A DNA stretch of 64,000 nt from an uncultured Elusimicrobiales bacterium. GTDB taxonomy: Bacteria; Elusimicrobiota; Elusimicrobia; Elusimicrobiales; Elusimicrobiaceae. The stretch covers positions 1 to 64,000 of the forward strand of contig CALUVB010000022.1 of the NCBI GenBank assembly GCA_944324115.1. The letters run 5' to 3'. This document shows positions 1 to 63,537 of the stretch, piece by piece. Each line of letters begins with the position of its first letter. The first letter of the stretch is position 1. The translations under genes were made by a program, and so were the position numbers. The notes below the pieces were generated by a model. It was not told where the DNA came from. It saw only the letters and a list, made by a program, of their open reading frames with translations, and did not search any database.

Positions 1-90
1 CACCAACAGCTCTATCAGCGTAAAGCCGCCAAAATCGGCTTTTCGGAAACTTTTAATACGAAAAATATTTTTTTGATATATCTTGTTCAT
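1..90 (-). CDS. prepilin-like protein, 5' fragment
   Basis: This is the first 30 codons of a type IV pilin or pseudopilin-like gene that runs off the left edge. The ATG at 90 opens a basic leader starting MNKIYQKNIF, followed by [10 protein letters not shown], the class III prepilin peptidase site: cleavage is expected before the Phe and the Glu is at mature position +5. There is no Shine-Dalgarno sequence upstream; instead a T-tract and a TGA-TAAATT box lead straight into the ATG. The start region forms an inverted repeat like those of the two other prepilin genes in this window. Secreted subunits of this type are assembled into pilus or secretion pseudopilus fibres. Which fibre this one joins cannot be told, because the variable C-terminal part lies outside the window. 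Confidence 0.85.
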   Translation of the reverse strand, partial: MNKIYQKNIFRIKSFRKADFGGFTLIELLV

Positions 91-111
91 ACGCAAAATT
101 TATCAAAAAAA
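68..111 (-). promoter_or_regulatory. start-codon dyad and leaderless promoter of prepilin 1
   Basis: Two 18-base arms (68-85 and 94-111) are complementary apart from one A-A mismatch and one G-U pair, read on the minus strand. The 8-base loop contains the ATG. The upstream arm also holds a T12 tract and the extended -10 box TGA-TAAATT. A TTGACT box lies 16 bases farther up and six bases separate the -10 box from the ATG. The same layout recurs at 22259-22300 and 47837-47878. Confidence 0.6.
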
Positions 112-1481: not shown

Positions 1482-1490
1482 ATTCTAGCA
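1482..1490 (-). promoter_or_regulatory. extended -10 promoter, leaderless gene
   Basis: TGC-TAGAAT preceded by TTT on the minus strand. The box ends six bases before the ATG at 1475, so transcription should start at or next to the start codon. Confidence 0.6.
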
Positions 1491-1624: not shown

Positions 1625-1633
1625 TGCTAAATT
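1625..1633 (+). promoter_or_regulatory. extended -10 promoter, leaderless gene
   Basis: TTT-TGC-TAAATT on the plus strand, ending six bases before the ATG at 1640. This mirrors the spacing seen for the divergent gene at 1475. Confidence 0.55.
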
Positions 1634-1639
1634 ATGAAT

Positions 1640-2527
1640 ATGAAGAAAATTTTACTATTTTGTCTTTTATCTTTTGCCGCGCTAAGTGCGCAGGCTGCTG
1701 TAGACGCTTCGGCAACGTACATGTATTCTTCCGATTATAACCAGGTACGCGCCGGAGCCGTTTTGCCGTTAGGGCTGAACGCCGCTGTCGGACTGGAAGG
1801 GCGTTATGTGGAGGATAAATTTTCCGAAGAAGAAGGGGCGTTTCAAGATCCCGTCTATTCCGTATATCTGCCCATACACTTGGACTTGGATTTGGTTAAA
1901 ATCAACCTGATTCCTTTCTATTATTTTAAAAATAAATCCGACAACCCGCTGTTGCAAGATACCTCCGCCTATGGGATCAGTACGCAGCTGGTGATGAATC
2001 TACGCCAAGATGAAGTGGAGGAGTTATATACCCAGGCATATATAGGCGTCTCATACGCCCGCCAAAAGGCCACCCTTTACAGAGAAGACACTTTATCTAA
2101 CGAGAACTACACCCAAATGGCTTACACGCTGGGGCTGAGGCAGAATTTCTTTGGAGCATTTACTTTTCATGTGGCCGGTACGGCTTATCAATATCCCAAC
2201 GGAATAAGCGACGTAAAAGATTTCCGCGGCATTATGGACCAAAACGATTTGGCTTTTACCCAGTCCTATGACATAAGCCGCGCTTTGGGAAAATATGTGC
2301 TTTCCACCCGTATTACCCGCGTGTGGCCGCAGAAACGTTCCACGCTTTATGCTGGATACCATTATGCGGAATTTTATACGGCAGACCCGCAACATTCTAT
2401 ATTGGTGGGGAACAGCTTCTTTGTGGCCGCCAATGCCAGTTTAGACGTGGCTTATAACCATCTGCAAAATACAGACGGAAATAACAAACGGGATATCCTG
2501 TTTGTAAATTTGAATTTTGCTTTCTAG
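1640..2527 (+). CDS. outer-membrane beta-barrel-like protein
   Basis: This 295-residue protein begins MKKILLFCLLSFAALSAQA, a clear signal peptide. It continues with alternating polar and aromatic segments typical of an outer-membrane barrel and ends in NLNFAF, the terminal-Phe signature that barrel assembly recognises. No specific family is recognised. The ATG at 1640 is preferred over the in-frame ATG two codons upstream because a TGC-TAAATT promoter box ends exactly six bases before it, as in other genes here; there is no Shine-Dalgarno sequence. It is the first gene of an operon with a histidine kinase 12 bases downstream and two further overlapping genes. A pore or surface sensor role is only a guess. 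Confidence 0.75.
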   Translation: MKKILLFCLLSFAALSAQAAVDASATYMYSSDYNQVRAGAVLPLGLNAAVGLEGRYVEDKFSEEEGAFQDPVYSVYLPIHLDLDLVKINLIPFYYFKNKSDNPLLQDTSAYGISTQLVMNLRQDEVEELYTQAYIGVSYARQKATLYREDTLSNENYTQMAYTLGLRQNFFGAFTFHVAGTAYQYPNGISDVKDFRGIMDQNDLAFTQSYDISRALGKYVLSTRITRVWPQKRSTLYAGYHYAEFYTADPQHSILVGNSFFVAANASLDVAYNHLQNTDGNNKRDILFVNLNFAF

Positions 2528-15915: not shown

Positions 15916-16965
15916 TTACAGCAGGATCCACAACGCCACAAAGTAACCGCCCATCAGCGCCAATCCCGCCGGCACTGCAACGCGGGCCCATTCGCGGCTT
16001 TTAATGCCCAATTTTTCCGCCGCCACGATATTAGGCAAATTGCCCTGCACCAACATACTGCCAAAAGCCGCCAGCCCAATGACCATATACATTAGGTTAT
16101 TAATCGTCACTTCCGGCGTCACTTCAATAGCCGCCAATGTGGCATTGTCTATAATGACAGAAACAGAATTGGCCCAGAACAAAATCTTTCCGCTTAAATG
16201 CGCAATCGTGCTCTGTGCAAACGGACGCAACCCCGTACTGATTAAATGCAAAGCCGCCACAAACAAATACACATGCCAGGTGCGGCGCAGCATGGAGTGG
16301 GTGTCTTCTTTATCCTCGCGTATATGCAGCTGCACTTGGGTATTGACGTCACGCAACGCATAGCCTGCCGCCAAAGACAACAGCAAAACAGCCGGCATAA
16401 TCCACCAGAAGAAATGCCGCAGCATGAAGAAAAAATCCGCTTGATGCGGGCCGGCGGCCAACTCATTGTAAATCACCAGTCCCAGCGGCTCCGCCAGCGG
16501 CAGAAGCACCGCTCCCAACCCAATGGCATAACAAGCATATACCGTCACGCGCACGGTTTGGGTCCGTTCCAAATTGACTACTTGCAGCACTTCGGCCAAA
16601 ATCAAAGCGGCTACGGTTACGCTGAATACGCTGGAAGTCATACCCAGCACAAACACCAAAATAGCAAAGCTGTATTTAGGTTCAAAATAACGGAACAAGA
16701 TAAACAAAACACGGAAAATATAGCGGGAATAATAGTTGAAAATAATACTGACCACCAACACGATAAACGCCACGTTTATAGGCGCGTTTAATGTTTGGTA
16801 AATAAAACTTTTGCTCCAGCCGCCGCTGATGGTCACCGCGGCAACACCCACCAACAGCAGAAATACTTCCAAATGGTTCTCCACCCATTTGCTGACCAGT
16901 GGCCATACCAACAAATTGACTACTACCAAACCGAGCAAAAGTTGGGTTAGCAAAGAAATTTCCAT
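15916..16965 (-). CDS. DUF1646 family putative cation transporter
   Basis: This 349-residue inner-membrane protein has about ten hydrophobic segments and the look of the ion-transporter superfamily. It has two repeated halves with broken-helix motifs near LGAVLLPLAEPLGL and WANSVSVIIDNATLAA, and GNLPNIVAAEKLGI near the end. This matches DUF1646, annotated as putative cation transporters. The ion is unknown. The minus strand reads T7-G-TAAAAT with six bases before the ATG, predicting a leaderless message. It stands alone, downstream of the divergent mntP pair and upstream of the hydrogenase promoter. Confidence 0.75.
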   Translation of the reverse strand: MEISLLTQLLLGLVVVNLLVWPLVSKWVENHLEVFLLLVGVAAVTISGGWSKSFIYQTLNAPINVAFIVLVVSIIFNYYSRYIFRVLFILFRYFEPKYSFAILVFVLGMTSSVFSVTVAALILAEVLQVVNLERTQTVRVTVYACYAIGLGAVLLPLAEPLGLVIYNELAAGPHQADFFFMLRHFFWWIMPAVLLLSLAAGYALRDVNTQVQLHIREDKEDTHSMLRRTWHVYLFVAALHLISTGLRPFAQSTIAHLSGKILFWANSVSVIIDNATLAAIEVTPEVTINNLMYMVIGLAAFGSMLVQGNLPNIVAAEKLGIKSREWARVAVPAGLALMGGYFVALWILL

Positions 16966-16971
16966 GTATTT

Positions 16972-16977
16972 ATTTTA
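16972..16977 (-). promoter_or_regulatory. -10 box, leaderless gene
   Basis: TAAAAT on the minus strand after a T7-G tract. It ends six bases before the ATG at 16965. Confidence 0.5.
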
Positions 16978-20248: not shown

Positions 20249-21427
20249 TTATTTTTTTTGATTATTTGCGTTAATAGGCACACCAGCCGCCAACAGCTGT
20301 TCTTCTATCTCTTTGTATCTGTTTTTCTTGGCAATCGTTAAAGCCGTTTGCCCGGCATTATCAGCAATATTCACATCTGCACCCGCTGCCAAAAGCTGCT
20401 GCACTTTTTCCGTACTTCCATCACGCACAGCAAATATCAGCGCTGTTTTACCTCGGTTATCTTTTGCATGTACGTCTGCGCCCGCTGCCAAAAGTTGCCG
20501 CACTATTTCCGTACTTCCATCACTAGCAGCAGTCATCAGAGCTGTTTCACCTTCATTATCTTTTGCATTTACGTCTGCACCTGCTGCCAAAAATAACTGT
20601 ACTATATCTATATAATTATGTTCGATCGCACTAAATAGTGCACGTGTTTTTTGGTGGTTTGAATATATATCCGCTTCAAGTAATACGCGGACCACATTGG
20701 TCTCTCCGTATAAAGCCGCCCTTTTCAATGCAGAATAATCGTCATCGGGAATTTCACCATTTGCCGCTTTCACTACATTTAGCATATCCACAGCAACGGG
20801 AATTTTCTCCTCATCATCTTTAGCGTAATCGGCTATTAAGGATAAGAGATTTTTTTCAATTTTCTTTTCATTAGGTAATGTCACCTGATACTCATTGTCA
20901 AAATTTATTTTTTTCGTTTTACAAGCCTTTTTTAACCCCTCCACATCACCCTGCAAAATGGCAGATAAATAATACTTTTCAAACCTTCTTTCATCTATTG
21001 TTCTTCTAATAAAGGTTTCATGCTTCGTATCCGCCAGAAACACCACTCCCATGGTACAAAGGAAAGCGCCTAAAGTGAATAGGAGTATTTTCAAAGAAAT
21101 TCCTTGGCTTATGATAGAGGGAATTGTCCACAACATACCAATAACTAATCCAATAATAGCCGCTATGATATAACTCGAGACGACTACTTCCCAAAAGGGA
21201 AATTTATCAGCACCCGGCGCAAGCATCACCAACAACGCAGTTTTAATTGTATTTACAATGGCTAAGGGAATTACCACAATCAAAGATATTTTAAATGCTC
21301 GGAAAAGCATTCTAAGCAAGATGGCAAACAATTCTTTTTGGAGAAAATACGAAGACACAAAGAATACAAGTCCAGATACACATAGAGCTATTACCGTCGC
21401 CTTTTGAGTTCCTCCGTAGCAACACAA
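20249..21427 (-). CDS. membrane protein with C-terminal ankyrin repeats
   Basis: This is a protein of up to 392 residues. N-terminal hydrophobic helices (about 10-145) are followed by a linker (about 150-240) and about five ankyrin repeats (about 240-385). The last three repeats are near-canonical, for example AAGADVNAKDNEGETALMTA. The linker (LSAILQGDVEGLKKAC) matches that of the larger ankyrin protein at 34636, so the two form a family. The start is unsure: the TTG at 21427 is the first usable codon, a GGAGG follows 14 bases later without a good start after it, and an out-of-frame ATG lies upstream. An early frameshift or a truncated N-terminus is possible. Confidence 0.75.
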   Translation of the reverse strand: MCCYGGTQKATVIALCVSGLVFFVSSYFLQKELFAILLRMLFRAFKISLIVVIPLAIVNTIKTALLVMLAPGADKFPFWEVVVSSYIIAAIIGLVIGMLWTIPSIISQGISLKILLFTLGAFLCTMGVVFLADTKHETFIRRTIDERRFEKYYLSAILQGDVEGLKKACKTKKINFDNEYQVTLPNEKKIEKNLLSLIADYAKDDEEKIPVAVDMLNVVKAANGEIPDDDYSALKRAALYGETNVVRVLLEADIYSNHQKTRALFSAIEHNYIDIVQLFLAAGADVNAKDNEGETALMTAASDGSTEIVRQLLAAGADVHAKDNRGKTALIFAVRDGSTEKVQQLLAAGADVNIADNAGQTALTIAKKNRYKEIEEQLLAAGVPINANNQKK

Positions 21428-21668: not shown

Positions 21669-22280
21669 TTAAGGCAGCACATAATACTGCAAATCACCTT
21701 CGACGGATAAGGGAGTTCCGCCTAAACTGGCGCAGACTTGTTTGCCGGTTTTATCATTCTTAAGCGCCATGCAATAGCGTTGGGAGCCTAAAGAAGGAGA
21801 GGCAGAATAATACAGATGATACGAATTAAGCATACAGTATGCCACTCCGCGGCTGCTATTATACTCAGACCCGTCTTCTATCCAACATTGATAGGTAGAA
21901 GATGCACACCGCCCCGGATAATCGTGAGATTTACAGTCGCCCAGCGCCACATCTAATTCCGAAAAATCAGTAGCATAAACTCCATTTGCCATATAATAGC
22001 GATCCTGAGCCTGGCGGATAGAGTTGGCTATCGTGACAATTTGCACATAGCGTGCTTTCAATACCGCCGCTTGATATTGCGGCAAAGCGACTGCCGCCAA
22101 AATGCCGATAATCAACACAACCACCAACAGTTCTATCAGCGTAAAGCCGCGCCACGCCCAATTGACAAGTCCATAATGGCAGGACTTTGTAAAGCTGCCA
22201 GAAATGAATTTAAAACATCTTTGTTTGTCTGCCAGCAGTCTTTTTACGGTAAAAATAGTTTTTTGACAAAATCTTCTCAT
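21669..22280 (-). CDS. type IV prepilin-like protein
   Basis: This 203-residue prepilin has a long basic leader ([10 protein letters not shown] onward), then [20 protein letters not shown] (about 43-62) with the prepilin peptidase site and Glu+5. The alpha-1 segment is [17 protein letters not shown], then [20 protein letters not shown]. Cys pairs in the C-terminal domain likely form the disulfide-bonded D-region (YCMAL to VCASLGG). It should be a subunit of a type IV pilus or type II secretion pseudopilus. No Shine-Dalgarno sequence is present; a TGA-TAAAAT box lies six bases before the ATG, and the start codon sits in the loop of an inverted repeat. Confidence 0.92.
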
Positions 22281-22300
22281 AGACAGATTTTATCAAAAAA
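22259..22300 (-). promoter_or_regulatory. start-codon dyad and leaderless promoter of prepilin 2
   Basis: Arms of 16 bases (22259-22274 and 22285-22300) pair with a single G-U on the coding strand. The 10-base loop holds the ATG. The upstream arm contains a T-tract and the box TGA-TAAAAT. Arm sequence differs from the copies at 68 and 47837 while pairing is kept. Confidence 0.6.
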
Positions 22301-31432: not shown

Positions 31433-31441
31433 ATTGTATCA
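31433..31441 (-). promoter_or_regulatory. extended -10 promoter of the ynb-like cluster
   Basis: TGA-TACAAT on the minus strand with five bases before the ATG at 31427 and no Shine-Dalgarno sequence. Confidence 0.6.
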
Positions 31442-32214: not shown

Positions 32215-33333
32215 CTATACTCCCAGGGAGGAACTTTCTCTTGCCGCCTGTTGCAAAAAAGAGACAAATTCCCGCTGGTATCCACTCTCACAGGGGGCTG
32301 TTTTTATATAATCCCAAACCGTTCTTCCTTCCTTATCCCGCAGCGCAGTGGAAGCGCCCTTTTTTAACAGAAAAACACACATTTTTTTATCCAATAATTG
32401 TGCGGCGAGAAACAACAAAGTCCGCCCCTGTGTATCCGGTCGGTTCACATCATAATGCAAATGCTGCAGCAACGTATCCACCACTGCGGCATTGGATTCT
32501 TTGACTGCATAAAACAGCAATTCTTGGTCCGCCCGTACCCCGTTGTGCAACAGCAAATACACCAGCTGGCTGTTGCGGCTGTCTATGGCGGTTTGTAAAA
32601 TCTCTTGGGTAACGGGAATATGAGCTGTCGTCAGCAGCAGCTTGGCCGTACGAAACTTCCCTTCTGAGACGGCTTCCTTAAACAGTTCCGGCAAATCATT
32701 CTGAAAAGCTCCCGTACGCAGCAGCATTTGCAGGCAATCTGCCGAATCCGCCTCTATAGCCGCTATGGCTGGGGTTTGGCGATAACGCCCCGTATAATCT
32801 GCCGTATATAAACCGAGGCGCACATTAGCTCCTTGTTCTATCAGCCAAGCTGTTTTGTCCTTCTGTCCTTCTTGGCAAGCTTTCCACAAAGCCGTATATA
32901 ATGTAAAAGAGGTTATGCCAAATTCCCGGTCGTAGGTCCCGTATCCCATACAGCTGTTAATATCCACTCCGGCTGATAATAATTTTTGGCAAATATTCGA
33001 CTTGGGGGATTGAATAAAAGCCCCCACCTTAGCCGCAGGGGAAACATCTGGCAAATGCGCTTGTATATAATGTCCATTTCCCTGTATAGCCTGTTTGATA
33101 AAAGCATCTGCCCCGGCCAACTCCCAAGCCGCTTGGAAATACGGCAGTAAAGAGAGCAGGCCTTCTTGCTGTTGATCGGACAGATTCCCAGCCATGATTT
33201 GAACCAAGCTGTCTAAGTACCCCACTTCCGTAAAATTTTCAAAACACTGTGGCAAAGCGGAAAACTGTAGTTCGGGCGGCAATTCCAAAAGCCGGATCTG
33301 CCCCTTAAGAAAATCTTCTTTACTTAATTGCAT
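32215..33333 (-). CDS. soluble ankyrin-repeat protein
   Basis: This 372-residue protein has no signal or membrane segment. From about residue 100 to 360 it is built of divergent ankyrin repeats, with the most canonical at the end (NRPDTQGRTLLFLAAQLLDK). The first 100 residues are helical and unrecognised. It is cytoplasmic by prediction; ankyrin arrays bind proteins, and the partner is unknown. It has a good AGGAGG site and a TGC-TAAAAT promoter at 33382. It differs from the two membrane ankyrin proteins and has no linker in common with them. Confidence 0.82.
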   Translation of the reverse strand: MQLSKEDFLKGQIRLLELPPELQFSALPQCFENFTEVGYLDSLVQIMAGNLSDQQQEGLLSLLPYFQAAWELAGADAFIKQAIQGNGHYIQAHLPDVSPAAKVGAFIQSPKSNICQKLLSAGVDINSCMGYGTYDREFGITSFTLYTALWKACQEGQKDKTAWLIEQGANVRLGLYTADYTGRYRQTPAIAAIEADSADCLQMLLRTGAFQNDLPELFKEAVSEGKFRTAKLLLTTAHIPVTQEILQTAIDSRNSQLVYLLLHNGVRADQELLFYAVKESNAAVVDTLLQHLHYDVNRPDTQGRTLLFLAAQLLDKKMCVFLLKKGASTALRDKEGRTVWDYIKTAPCESGYQREFVSFLQQAARESSSLGV

Positions 33334-33498: not shown

Positions 33499-34371
33499 AT
33501 GAAAATACAAAGTTTATCTATTGTCGTGCCGAACAAAAACTGCGTCAACAACTGTGCATTCTGTGTTTCTAAAATGCACACGGAAGACTATCCCAACCAA
33601 AAAGAAGGCAATGACCGCTTCTATGACTTATACGAGAAAGATTATATCAAAAGATTGGAATTTGCCCGGGATAACGGCTGCAATACGGTAATCTTGACCG
33701 GCAACAGTGAGCCACAGCAAAACCGGGAATTTCTAAAGCATTTCGGCACTATCAACAATCATCTCTCCAAGCCTTTCCGCAAAATAGACATACAAACAAC
33801 GGGGGTATTAATAGATGACGAATACCTGCGTTTTATGCGCAATCATGTAGGAATCAACACCATTGCTCTTTCCATATCAGACTTATTTAATGACGAACAA
33901 AATGCCCGCATCAATGGCACGCCCCAACAATTAACCGTGCATATTGCGCACTTGTGCAGTGAAATCAAAAGATATGATTTCAATCTGCGTCTTTCCTTAA
34001 ATATGACGGACACATATAATAACAGAAGTGCAGAAGAAATCTTTGACTATGCCAAAGAGCTCGGAGCCAATCAAATCACTTTTAGGGAGCTTTATAGTTC
34101 CGGTACGGGCACGCCGCAGGACAATTGGATAAAAGAACATGCCGCCTCTAAAGAATTATTGCAGTCCATCAAATCTTTCATCAAAACAAACGGCCGCCCG
34201 CTGCGCATTATGGAATACGGACAAACTCTTTATTCGGTGAAAGAAATGTCTGTAGTAGTAGATGACGACTGTATGTCCACCGCCTTAAAAGAAGAAATGA
34301 AATACTTGATTTTAAGACCCGACTGCAAGCTCTATTCCCTCTGGAACGACAAAGGCAGCCTAGTCTTCTAA
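33499..34371 (+). CDS. radical SAM enzyme of unknown substrate
   Basis: This 290-residue protein has the radical SAM cluster motif C-x3-C-x2-C in NCVNNCAFC (Cys15, Cys19, Cys22). A compact barrel follows with the SAM-binding region around ILTGNSEPQ and the strand LRLSLNMTD. No SPASM or other C-terminal Fe-S domain is visible; single Cys residues near the end (DDDCMST, RPDCKLY) are not clustered. It reductively cleaves SAM to make a radical, but the substrate is unknown. It stands alone with a leader of about 70 bases and no peptide precursor or partner gene beside it. The ATG at 33499 follows GGGAATAG weakly. Confidence 0.85.
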   Translation: MKIQSLSIVVPNKNCVNNCAFCVSKMHTEDYPNQKEGNDRFYDLYEKDYIKRLEFARDNGCNTVILTGNSEPQQNREFLKHFGTINNHLSKPFRKIDIQTTGVLIDDEYLRFMRNHVGINTIALSISDLFNDEQNARINGTPQQLTVHIAHLCSEIKRYDFNLRLSLNMTDTYNNRSAEEIFDYAKELGANQITFRELYSSGTGTPQDNWIKEHAASKELLQSIKSFIKTNGRPLRIMEYGQTLYSVKEMSVVVDDDCMSTALKEEMKYLILRPDCKLYSLWNDKGSLVF

Positions 34372-47264: not shown

Positions 47265-47858
47265 TTAACAGCAAAAACAATCTTCGCTCTCTACCCCCAT
47301 CAATTTGGCTACATCTATGTCCAGAAACTTTCCGTTGGCACAGTCGGGTCCTTCTTGTCCAACAGTCAGCTTGCCTTCTCTGTCTATACAAAAACACACT
47401 TCTGCTTTCCAATATTTGGCTACCGCCAACGTGTCATAGGTATTCAATCCGCCTTTATCTACACAGAATAAAAAATTACCCGTGTCAAAGCAGTTGCTTC
47501 CTGGGCTACTAGGAAACTGTATATCTAAATTTTCCACCCTAGTGCAGGCTTCATCTTCTTGTCCGTTGGCCAATTCACAGCGCTGGACAGACTGGGCTAA
47601 GCTTTTCAAATTAATCAACGCCTCTGCAAAGCGGCTTTTCAGAACCGCTTTTTCATATTGAGGCAAAGCAATCGCCGCCAAGATACCAATAATCAACACG
47701 ACCACCAAGAGTTCTATCAGCGTAAACCCCCGGCCCCTTGATGACGGGCACGCAGCTGGAGAACAGGGAACCTCACCAGCACCTTGTTTCAGACGGCCTA
47801 ATTCGCTTTTTTTACGTACTGTAAGCGCAGAAATTATTTTTTGATACATTTTGTTCAT
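47265..47858 (-). CDS. type IV prepilin-like protein
   Basis: This 197-residue prepilin has a long basic leader (MNKMYQKIIS onward, about 43 residues), then [20 protein letters not shown] with the prepilin peptidase site. ALPQYEKAVLKSRFAEA leads into a globular domain rich in Cys (CELANGQ, ACTRV, NCFDTG, FCVDKG, VCFCIDRE and a terminal DCFCC). The number of Cys residues is unusual and suggests several disulfides. The ATG at 47858 is preferred over a TTG two codons upstream, because it has the same six-base spacing to a -10 box as the other prepilins. The start codon sits inside a perfect 18-base inverted repeat. Confidence 0.92.
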   Translation of the reverse strand: MNKMYQKIISALTVRKKSELGRLKQGAGEVPCSPAACPSSRGRGFTLIELLVVVLIIGILAAIALPQYEKAVLKSRFAEALINLKSLAQSVQRCELANGQEDEACTRVENLDIQFPSSPGSNCFDTGNFLFCVDKGGLNTYDTLAVAKYWKAEVCFCIDREGKLTVGQEGPDCANGKFLDIDVAKLMGVESEDCFCC

Positions 47859-47878
47859 AGACAAAATGTATCAAAAAA
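47837..47878 (-). promoter_or_regulatory. start-codon dyad and leaderless promoter of prepilin 3
   Basis: Perfect 18-base arms (47837-47854 and 47861-47878) flank a six-base loop that contains the ATG. The upstream arm contains a T-tract and TGA-TACATT, ending six bases before the ATG. TTGCAT lies 16 bases farther up as a weak -35. This is the best copy of the three. Confidence 0.65.
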
Positions 47879-53291: not shown

Positions 53292-54308
53292 TTATAAAAC
53301 TAACGTATCTTCCATGTCCGGTCCGGTGGATATCAGTGCCAGCTTCGGGTGCGGATAGGTTTGCCGGGAAAGTTCACGAATGTTTTCCAAGAATTCCTGG
53401 GCCTGCGGCGTAAAATCCTCATAACTTTTGATATGGTCATTTCCTTCAAACATATCAATATGCGTAATGGCGATTTTGGTGGCATTGTTAATCATTATAG
53501 CGCGGGAAGCGGAACGTTTTTCAAACACGCCTACGCGGCGCAGCCGTTTGCTTACGCTGCCGATTTCGTGACCTTTCGTATGATATATTTCCAAATCTTT
53601 CTCATCAGTCATTTCTTTTTCCAGCGGCCCCGGGCCCACCCGGGTAATATATGGTTTAAACACCACATACACATCGCGCACGCTTTTGGGGCCCAGCCCA
53701 GCTTCCCCTAAAAAAGTGGAGGCGGTGGTATCACGCGAGGTAACAAAAGGATATTCTCCATGAAGCAAAGACAGTTTTATTCCCTGCGTACCCTCCAATA
53801 AAATATGTTCCCCCTTATCCAAAGCGCTGTTCAGCAGTTCCGGCACGTCTTGGATAAATTCTTTAAGCAAAGGCTCATCTTTTGCAAATTTAACAGCACG
53901 GCGTTCTATACGGTCTTTAACCGCTTGCCCCAGCCCTGTACCCACGCTGCCGATATGCTGCATAAAGTGGCTGGCGCCCTTTTCGGCGGCGGTTTCTTCA
54001 TCAGTAATTAATACGGCATATGGGTCTATAATCAGCCGCTCAGCCGTGCCGGTCAGCTCAACTTCTTTAAGCAACCATTCCGTTTTGGTATAAGCTCCTG
54101 CCCCCAGCACCAGCTTCGTCGCCGGGTTTAAAAACCCAGACGGGATATTTTTCAGCGTATAAGATTTGCCGTCAGCCACCACGGTATGCCCCGCATTGGG
54201 ACCGCCTACCCGTACGCAATATTCATAATCTCCTTTATAAGACAAATAAGCAGAAATCTTTCCTTTTCCTTCATCACCGGCCTGTCCGCCGCACACAATA
54301 TCTATCAT
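53292..54308 (-). CDS. purA: adenylosuccinate synthetase, short archaeal type
   Basis: This 338-residue GTP-dependent enzyme makes adenylosuccinate from IMP and aspartate. The P-loop region is GGQAGDEGKGK and the catalytic Asp is kept (GDEG), which argues against the phage PurZ variant. Other signatures are NAGHTVV, SVGTGLGQ, EGTQGIKLSLLHGEYPF and a TTAST element. It is about 90 residues shorter than the common bacterial PurA and resembles the compact archaeal form. The start has GGGAGG upstream and overlaps the purB stop by four bases. Confidence 0.92.
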   Translation of the reverse strand: MIDIVCGGQAGDEGKGKISAYLSYKGDYEYCVRVGGPNAGHTVVADGKSYTLKNIPSGFLNPATKLVLGAGAYTKTEWLLKEVELTGTAERLIIDPYAVLITDEETAAEKGASHFMQHIGSVGTGLGQAVKDRIERRAVKFAKDEPLLKEFIQDVPELLNSALDKGEHILLEGTQGIKLSLLHGEYPFVTSRDTTASTFLGEAGLGPKSVRDVYVVFKPYITRVGPGPLEKEMTDEKDLEIYHTKGHEIGSVSKRLRRVGVFEKRSASRAIMINNATKIAITHIDMFEGNDHIKSYEDFTPQAQEFLENIRELSRQTYPHPKLALISTGPDMEDTLVL

Positions 54309-55699
54309 TTCTTTCCTCCCGCCTGCTCTGCTGCAAGCCCTATATAAGAATCTACAGTTAGAGACAATATCCTTTGTTTTGTATTTTTGTCCAAATGCAA
54401 CGTGTTTACAAAATGCCTCAAATCTTCTTCCGTCACTTCGTGCCCGCGTGTAAGCGCTTTAAGCTGTTCATATGCGTTTTTCACGCCGGCGGCACGCAGC
54501 ATGGTCTGATACCCTTCGGCCAGCACCTCCGGGTGGGCCGCCAATTCCACCCAGGCGGCACGCGCATCAAAATCCGTTTTTTCCAACCCTTTGAGCAAAG
54601 AGCGGTACGCCACCACCCCATGTCCTAATGCCACAGGAATATTGCGCAATACCGTAGAGTCCGACAAATCCCGCTGCAAACGGGAAAGCGGCAATTTTTC
54701 GCTCAAAAAAGACAATAATGCGTTGGCTAAGCCCAAATTTCCTTCCGCATTTTCAAAATCAATAGGATTTATTTTTTGCGGCATGGTGGAAGATCCCACT
54801 TCACCAGCCACGGAACGCTGCGTAACCAGCCCGGCGGAAATATACCGCCACATATCTTGGCACAGCCCCAATAAAATGACATGAATACGCCGCAGCGCAT
54901 CAAACGTCTCAGCATAACTGTCGCGGTTATCTATCTGCGTAGAAACGGGGCTGACAAACAGCTTTATCTTCCGGCCTTTATTTAGCTGTGCGGCCCACAT
55001 ACGGGCCGCGCGGGGCCAGTCAACCGCCGCAAACGCCGCCACATGGGCATTATAAGCGCCTATCGCTCCTCCGGCTTTGCATGAAATTTGCTGCTTTTTA
55101 AATTGTGCCAACTGGCGTGCAAGACGGCTTTCAAACACGCGCAACTCTCTGCCAAATGTCGTCGGAACAGCCGGCTGTCCATGCGTACGCGCCAACATCA
55201 CACGGCGCGCATATTTGCGTGCGCGGCACGCTAAGGCCCGGCGCACCTCTTCCAACAAGGGCAGCACCGCTTTTTCCAAAGCAGCAGAAAGCACTTGCGC
55301 ATAGGCGGCGCTATTGATGTCTTCGCTGGTCAATGCAAAATGCACCCACGACGTATGTGATGAAAAACCATGCTGGGCCAGCTTGTCGGCTATAAAATAT
55401 TCCACCGCCTTCACATCATGATGCGTGGCCGAACGACCGTTCGCCCCTTGCCATTCTATCTTTTCCAGCAAATCCAAATCCGTTTCGTTCAGCTGCGGCA
55501 ACCGCTCAAGCAGTTGTTTTTCTTTAACAGCAATCGGAGCAAACCCCGGCAAATGGAGTTTATCCAAAGTTAACAGCCACACTACTTCCGCCCGCACCCG
55601 CGCACGAGCAAAAGCCGCCGGGCTACATGTTTCCTGCAGCGTACCGAGCTGGTGACGATAACGCCCGTCTAACGGGCTGAGAGCAGTCTGATATTCCAT
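54305..55699 (-). CDS. purB: adenylosuccinate lyase
   Basis: This 464-residue enzyme of the fumarase/aspartase superfamily acts in purine synthesis on SAICAR and adenylosuccinate. It opens with ALSPLDGRYRHQL and has ATHHDVKAVEYF, TSEDINSAAYA and RTHGQPAVPTTFG. The catalytic loop is SSTMPQKINPIDFENAEG; the common His of this loop is Gln here, while the general acid/base His residues of the first motifs are kept. It is the E. coli-like rather than the short B. subtilis-like type. TGC-TAAAAT lies six bases before the ATG, so the purBA message is predicted to be leaderless. Confidence 0.95.
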   Translation of the reverse strand: MEYQTALSPLDGRYRHQLGTLQETCSPAAFARARVRAEVVWLLTLDKLHLPGFAPIAVKEKQLLERLPQLNETDLDLLEKIEWQGANGRSATHHDVKAVEYFIADKLAQHGFSSHTSWVHFALTSEDINSAAYAQVLSAALEKAVLPLLEEVRRALACRARKYARRVMLARTHGQPAVPTTFGRELRVFESRLARQLAQFKKQQISCKAGGAIGAYNAHVAAFAAVDWPRAARMWAAQLNKGRKIKLFVSPVSTQIDNRDSYAETFDALRRIHVILLGLCQDMWRYISAGLVTQRSVAGEVGSSTMPQKINPIDFENAEGNLGLANALLSFLSEKLPLSRLQRDLSDSTVLRNIPVALGHGVVAYRSLLKGLEKTDFDARAAWVELAAHPEVLAEGYQTMLRAAGVKNAYEQLKALTRGHEVTEEDLRHFVNTLHLDKNTKQRILSLTVDSYIGLAAEQAGGKK

Positions 55700-55705
55700 G
55701 TTTTT

Positions 55706-55714
55706 ATTTTAGCA
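55706..55714 (-). promoter_or_regulatory. extended -10 promoter of purBA, leaderless
   Basis: TT-TGC-TAAAAT on the minus strand. It ends six bases before the ATG at 55699 and no ribosome site is present. Confidence 0.65.
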
Positions 55715-63528: not shown

Positions 63529-63537
63529 TGCTACAAT
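63529..63537 (+). promoter_or_regulatory. extended -10 promoter, leaderless gene
   Basis: TGC-TACAAT on the plus strand, ending six bases before the ATG at 63544. Confidence 0.65.

What the first reader, a model, noticed from the sequence alone, without database searches (positions are those of the whole stretch)
55699..55714. Extended -10 box TGC-TAnAAT set six bases before the ATG predicts many leaderless mRNAs
The same box recurs before genes starting at 1475, 1640, 5700, 10384, 22413, 33333, 33499, 42962, 45997, 50857, 51937, 55699 and 63544; close variants (TGA or TGT) precede 18256, 31427, 36243 and the prepilins. In 1475, 1640, 55699, 63544, the three prepilins and (with a plain TAAAAT) 16965, exactly six bases lie between the box and the ATG; 18256 has seven and 31427 five. 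None of these has a Shine-Dalgarno sequence, while genes whose box lies farther away do. This suggests two translation-initiation modes set by promoter position, affecting purBA, the ynb-like cluster and pilins.
Basis: partly seen in the sequence, partly recalled or inferred. Interest (0 to 1): 0.65.

Follow-up and report, generated by a model that had tools for sequence, protein, structure and literature searches.

The report
Leaderless promoters in gut Elusimicrobia
In this gut bacterium roughly one gene in nine seems to be transcribed starting exactly at its start codon, with no ribosome-binding leader, and about fifty surface-fibre (pilin) genes share one such promoter built as a DNA palindrome centred on that start, which suggests they are controlled together.

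Summary
The window is from an Elusimicrobiaceae MAG. In an 844-kb sample of its genome, TGnTAnAAT is followed by an ATG opening an ORF of 80 aa or more at spacing 6 in 28 cases. Other spacings from 0 to 40 give 0-5 each. GTG and TTG give none at spacing 6. A trained motif finds 82 of 663 ATG genes (12%) at N6. In all 82 the base before the ATG is a pyrimidine; almost none lies close behind a same-strand gene; two have a rival Shine-Dalgarno start nearby. purB keeps the adjacent box across the family. N6 exceeds a control spacing 5-fold in the genus and 3-fold in the sister family, but not outside the class. Leaderless transcription is the best reading; no start site has been mapped.

Following the prepilins revealed something less ordinary. 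About 50 prepilin genes here, and at least 54 in a congener, share a leaderless promoter (TTGCAT, T12, -10, N6, ATG). Its -10 box and first codons form a covarying palindrome centred on the predicted start site, probably the operator of a pilin regulon.

The parts
55706..55714 (-). Extended -10 box TGCTAAAAT of purB; spacer AAAAAC (55700-55705); ATG 55697-55699
   Evidence: Exact sequence and spacing; a -10-like box is kept next to the ATG in nearly all purB orthologs of the family
54305..55699 (-). purB (adenylosuccinate lyase), predicted leaderless; purA (53292-54308) follows with a 4-base ATGA overlap
   Evidence: NCBIfam PRK09285.1, E 4e-159; overlap
1482..1490 (-). Box TGCTAGAAT, N6, ATG 1475 of a calcineurin-like phosphoesterase gene (258-1475)
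1625..1633 (+). Box TGCTAAATT, N6 (ATGAAT), ATG 1640; an in-frame ATG at 1634 lies directly against the box
16972..16977 (-). TAAAAT without TG, N6, ATG 16965 of a DUF1646 membrane protein gene (15916-16965)
63529..63537 (+). Box TGCTACAAT, N6, ATG 63544; ORF continues past the window end
47839..47878 (-). Palindromic leaderless prepilin promoter: TTTTTTGATACATTTTG TCT ATG AAC AAAATGTATCAAAA (TTGCAT -35 and T-tract just upstream); prepilin gene 47265-47858
22287..22295 (-). Box TGATAAAAT, N6, ATG 22280 of a prepilin gene (21669-22280); degenerate copy of the palindromic module
71..110 (-). Third palindromic prepilin module (ATG at 90, TTGACT -35); gene runs off the window start
31433..31441 (-). 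Near variant: TGATACAAT with five bases before ATG 31427

Best explanation
These are sigma-70-type promoters placed so that transcription starts on the A of the ATG. RNA polymerase with the primary sigma recognises TTTTGnTAnAAT, usually without a -35, and starts seven bases downstream of the box. The mRNA then has no 5' leader and is translated from its 5'-terminal AUG without a Shine-Dalgarno site. Genes with a box 17 or more bases upstream get a leader and mostly use Shine-Dalgarno. About 12% of genes in this genome use the first mode, mostly single or first genes of transcription units (purB, leuS, tgt, ruvA, recG, def, queH, a cytidylyltransferase, prepilins). A subgroup of about 50 prepilin genes adds a TTGCAT/TTGACT -35, a T-tract of about 12 and a palindrome centred on the start site, most likely a shared operator. 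Shown: box, fixed spacing, ATG-only use, pyrimidine at -1, gene position, conservation, palindrome with covariation. Inferred: the actual start sites, leaderless translation, operator function.
For: Spacing: 28 ORF-opening ATGs at N6 against 0-5 at each other spacing from 0 to 40; 47 genome-wide against 1 for the reversed pattern. A scan of starts without rivals, not seeded with the motif, ranks TAAAA at -12 first. A trained matrix finds 82 of 663 ATG genes at N6, 0-12 at every other spacing, and no excess for GTG/TTG. Base -1 was not part of the matrix and is T or C in 82 of 82; in the 58 non-pilin genes 58 of 58, against 243 of 328 in SD-led genes (Fisher p 2e-7). 2 of 79 lie within 30 nt behind a same-strand gene, against 159 of 351 SD-led genes; rival SD starts within 90 nt in 2 of 82 against 57 of 359. 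Pfam matches of RuvA, QueH, deformylase and MgtC begin at residues 1-8. 31 of 32 distinct purB orthologs keep a -10-like box ending 10 nt or less before the ATG, 14 of them at exactly N6 (counted by eye). The primary sigma keeps HMxE in the region that contacts TGn (the role of these residues is from general knowledge). N6/N9 ratio 5.4 in the genus, 4.6 in other genera of the family, 3.0 in the sister family, 1.7 in the rest of the class, about 1.1 elsewhere in the phylum.
Against: No transcript data exist for this MAG. The box occupies -15 to -7, so absence of an SD there is partly forced. Upstream promoters giving a second, leadered transcript are not excluded. Genes were called with a home-made caller on 55% of the genome. 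Training the same motif at other spacings also yields sites (6-62), but with much lower information. About half of the purB orthologs have N7 to N10, meaning leaders of 1-4 nt if the start rule holds.
Confidence: 0.88

Rival explanations
1. The boxes are real promoters but serve transcripts whose real start codon lies downstream with a Shine-Dalgarno site; the N6 ATG is incidental.
For: Some ORFs have later in-frame starts, and coding scores sometimes peak downstream.
Against: 28 of 29 N6 ATGs open an ORF of 80 aa or more and only ATG is used; SD starts within 90 nt in 2 of 82; Pfam matches begin at or near the N6 ATG.
Confidence: 0.06
2. The upstream motif is not a promoter but a translation-enhancing A/T-rich element on a longer leader.
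For: A/T-rich leaders can aid SD-free initiation (general knowledge).
Against: TGn, TAnAAT and a fixed 6-base spacing with pyrimidine at -1 match promoter geometry; the genes are promoter-proximal.
Confidence: 0.04
3. For the prepilin palindrome: it is a site for a dedicated site-specific recombinase that shuffles pilin cassettes, not an operator.
For: Two long arms around a short variable centre, many copies, tandem copies, patchy spread in the genus.
Against: No conserved 3' boundary. G000, G047 and G093 carry the palindrome with only two tyrosine recombinases each, presumably XerC/XerD, and G093 has no serine recombinase. The conserved block includes a -35 and a T-tract.
Confidence: 0.12
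4. For the prepilin palindrome: in read-through transcripts it folds into a hairpin with the AUG in the loop, so that only leaderless transcripts are translated.
For: Both arms would be present in any transcript starting upstream.
Against: Three copies keep the palindrome without an ATG in its centre and use a downstream SD start (L037, L038).
Confidence: 0.12

Closest known systems
Bacterial leaderless genes with TANNNT about 12 bp upstream of the start (Zheng et al. 2011, PMC3160421)
   Same: -10-like box at the same place, no SD, a minority of genes in the genome, alongside SD-led genes
   Different: Elusimicrobia is not named in that text; here the box is an extended TTTTGnTAnAAT with a very sharp N6, and about 12% of genes use it (their averages: Actinobacteria 19%, Deinococcus-Thermus 39%, other bacteria 8%)
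The -10 motif adjacent to ORFs in Deinococcus-Thermus (PMC12340547)
   Same: -10 at a fixed short distance from the ORF, shown by experiment there to drive leaderless mRNA
   Different: Different phylum and lower share; no extended TGn is mentioned in the text searched
Extended -10 sigma-70 promoters
   Same: TGn upstream of TAnAAT, no -35 enrichment in the non-pilin set, primary sigma present
   Different: Position locked to the start codon
Bidirectional promoters (PMC10268837)
   Same: Dyad symmetry that includes the -10 element
   Different: Known ones share one -10 region with start sites usually 18 bp apart; here the two -10-like arms flank the start site and only one side has a -35 and T-tract

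Membership tests
Bacterial leaderless gene class | -10 box at a fixed distance of about 12 bp before the start codon, beyond chance | tested here: met
Bacterial leaderless gene class | No Shine-Dalgarno site for these starts | tested here: met
   0 of 28 strict sites; partly forced because the box fills the space
Bacterial leaderless gene class | AUG start codon | tested here: met
   No GTG/TTG excess at N6
Bacterial leaderless gene class | First or single genes of transcription units | tested here: met
   2 of 79 within 30 nt of an upstream same-strand gene against 159 of 351
Bacterial leaderless gene class | mRNA 5' end at the A of AUG | not testable with these tools
   No RNA data; indirect support from the pyrimidine at -1
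Extended -10 sigma-70 promoter | TGn before TAnAAT | tested here: met
   Matrix: T 0.91 at -15, G 0.70 at -14
Extended -10 sigma-70 promoter | Primary sigma with the residues that contact TGn (HMxE) | tested here: met
   RpoD reads IPVHMKEL, aligned with IPVHMVET of SigA structures; residue role from general knowledge
Bidirectional promoter | Opposed start sites, mostly 18 bp apart, sharing one -10 region | tested here: not met
   Palindrome axis lies at the predicted start site, arms outside; geometry from PMC10268837
Site-specific recombination site (pilin shuffling) | A dedicated tyrosine or serine recombinase in all genomes that carry the site | tested here: not met
   Carriers G000, G047 and G093 have two tyrosine recombinases each; G093 has no serine recombinase; other recombinase types not tested
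Transcription-factor operator | Inverted repeat over the promoter with arms that covary | tested here: met
   87% complementarity at the axis against 30% in other leaderless genes; pair -10/+11 has C-G 5 of 5
Transcription-factor operator | A protein that binds it | not tested
   No regulator identified

The most novel reading that the evidence does not exclude
Within one Elusimicrobiaceae genus, some species run a regulon of about 10 to 55 or more prepilin genes from one module: -35, a T-tract whose length varies between copies and could make each promoter phase-variable by slippage, a -10 at N6, and a palindromic operator centred on the transcription start and start codon, so that one arm of the operator encodes the conserved first residues (MnKIYQK). 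The coding start has been shaped by the DNA element, and pilins may be switched individually and together.
Probability: 0.35. Interest if true: 0.75.

Novelty: new variant of a known kind. Interest (0 to 1): 0.58.

Why it matters
Leaderless initiation is reported mainly from Actinobacteria and Deinococcus-Thermus among bacteria. A sharp, countable signature in the family Elusimicrobiaceae and its sister family, fading across the class, lets its gain or loss be traced inside one phylum. It also gives better start-codon annotation for these MAGs. The prepilin module shows a promoter and probable operator that dictate protein sequence, and points to coordinated control of dozens of pilins in a gut bacterium.

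Tried and rejected
The tool said to take stretches, so 39 stretches (780 kb, plus the window) were used for spacing statistics, and pattern search for genome-wide counts. A first, strict gene caller found only 460 genes and was replaced. A -35 element was sought in non-pilin leaderless promoters and not found. The peptide motif MnKIYQK as cause of the palindrome was rejected: three copies keep the palindrome outside the coding region, and the arms covary. Bidirectional-promoter geometry was rejected. A dedicated tyrosine or serine recombinase was not found in all carriers. Prepilins of a sample of relatives without the palindrome are mostly SD-led with short leader peptides, so leaderlessness is not a general pilin trait. 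Literature searches for Elusimicrobia with leaderless or Shine-Dalgarno found no report of leaderless genes there; the 2009 Elusimicrobium minutum genome paper, recalled from memory, could not be read.

Full report
What the window is. The best matches of the purB protein in named genomes are Elusimicrobiaceae MAGs from animal guts (70 and 58% identity). The window is contig C22, bases 1-64000, of a 1.53-Mb genome.

Checking the observation. At 55699 the minus strand reads TGCTAAAAT AAAAAC ATG, as claimed. The six-base distance is also right for 1475, 1640, 16965, 63544 and the prepilins at 22280, 47858 and 90. The claim that the same box precedes 13 genes is overstated: only six exact TGCTAnAAT exist in the window, and several listed genes have degenerate or distant boxes.

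Is it more than chance? Yes. Genome-wide, TGnTAnAAT-N6-ATG occurs 47 times against 1 for the reversed pattern. In the 844-kb sample there are 182 such boxes. 28 have an ATG opening an ORF of 80 aa or more at N6; every other spacing from 0 to 40 gives 0-5, spacings 11-16 none, and leadered genes begin at 17. GTG and TTG are absent at N6. A k-mer scan of starts without nearby rivals, not seeded with the motif, ranked TAAAA at -12 first. A trained 12-base matrix (TTTTGnTAnAAT) finds 82 of 663 ATG genes at N6, against 0-12 at each other spacing up to 60, an excess of about 77 genes or 12%. The same training at other spacings gives less informative motifs (12.4 bits at N6, 6.6-9.1 elsewhere).

Independent signs that the A of ATG is the start site. 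Base -1, not part of the matrix, is T or C in 82 of 82 genes; for the 58 non-pilin genes the contrast with SD-led genes (243 of 328) gives Fisher p 2e-7. Leaderless candidates are promoter-proximal: 2 of 79 lie within 30 nt behind a same-strand gene, against 159 of 351 SD-led genes. Rival SD starts within 90 nt are rare (2 of 82 against 57 of 359). Pfam matches of RuvA (from residue 1), QueH and deformylase (residue 4) and MgtC (residue 8) show that the N6 ATGs are plausible gene starts; leuS, recG, tgt and a cytidylyltransferase are also in the set. Non-pilin promoters show no -35 enrichment. The genome has an ordinary primary sigma that keeps the HMxE residues. Class Elusimicrobia has a canonical anti-SD (PMC10783764).

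Conservation. I compared 32 distinct purB orthologs (about 51-79% identity to the window protein). 31 have a -10-like box ending 10 nt or less before the ATG: 14 at exactly N6, 14 at N7-N10 (N8 in the closest relatives, N8-N10 in other genera), and 3 with two ATGs of which the second lies at N6 or N7 (counted by eye). If the start rule holds, leaders are 0-4 nt. Across 150 genomes of the phylum, N6 against a control spacing N9 averages 38.0 vs 7.0 in the genus, 29.2 vs 6.4 in other genera of the family, 24.6 vs 8.1 in the sister family, 13.2 vs 7.7 in the rest of the class, and about 11 vs 10 elsewhere (values copied by hand from the tables, the two lists of the last group differ by one entry).

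The prepilin module. 24 of the 82 leaderless candidates are prepilins, and 24 of 39 prepilins found in the sample are in this class. They share TTGCAT or TTGACT, a T-tract mostly 12 long (9-15), GATAAATTTTGnnT, ATG, nnnAAAATTTATCAAAA. DNA outside this block is not shared, neither upstream nor at the 3' end. The block is a palindrome whose axis lies between the A and the T of ATG, at the predicted start site: 87% complementarity, against 53% or less at neighbouring axes and 30% in other leaderless genes. The arms covary: with C in the -10 box (TACATT) the right arm carries G (AATGTATC) in 5 of 5 sampled genes, which changes the encoded isoleucine to methionine. Further own-genome copies show more C-G pairs and one G-C. 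Three copies keep the palindrome but have no ATG in it and use a downstream SD start (L037, L038), so the element acts as DNA. I count about 50 copies in this genome: 40 listed with up to two mismatches, and about a dozen more degenerate ones. At least 54 distinct places are listed for G036; G067 has similar match counts; six other sampled congeners have fewer, and the remaining congeners and other genera none. Prepilins of a sample of non-carriers are mostly SD-led with short leader peptides. The carriers G000, G047 and G093 have two tyrosine recombinases each and G093 no serine recombinase, which speaks against a dedicated recombinase of those two types. I therefore favour an operator, at about 0.55, over recombination or hairpin roles. 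The T-tract sits between -35 and -10 and differs in length between copies, so phase variation is possible but untested.

Novelty. Leaderless genes with a -10 box next to the start are well known (PMC3160421, PMC12340547). I found no report for Elusimicrobiota in the held library. The palindromic, leaderless, many-copy prepilin promoter is the part for which I found no description.

Noticed in passing
G022, G013, G034, G065, G016 and others: Elusimicrobiaceae genomes of 1.3-1.6 Mb carry 32 to 150 or more matches to a prepilin N-terminus; in G022 the limit of 150 scored was reached.
   Followed up: partly
window 47265-47858 and 21669-22280; L039, L036, L044 and others: Prepilins with the palindromic promoter have unusually long leader peptides before G/FTLIEL: about 20-22 residues, or 42-44 in some, against 3-16 in most SD-led ones.
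   Followed up: partly
L037:7540 and 6910, L038:2081 (minus strand): Prepilin copies where the palindrome is intact but the ATG is gone from its centre and a downstream start with GAGG is used: a natural switch between leaderless and leadered forms.
   Followed up: partly
L129-L132, L048: In the closest relatives purB has the box at N8 (...acgtATG and similar) instead of N6, which predicts a 2-nt leader.
   Followed up: no
window 1634-1642: Two in-frame ATGs: one touching the box (1634) and one at N6 (1640); a gene caller taking the longest ORF would pick the wrong one.
   Followed up: no
window 20249-21427 and 32215-33333: Ankyrin-repeat-like proteins (32215-33333 by NCBIfam matches to ankyrin-type proteins; 20249-21427 by the look of the sequence only).
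   Followed up: no
window 33499-34371: Radical SAM protein with weak similarity to peptide maturases.
   Followed up: no
G000:C25:71-1393: Three prepilin modules about 625-660 bp apart with identical 40-bp palindromes, an apparent recent tandem amplification at a contig end.
   Followed up: no
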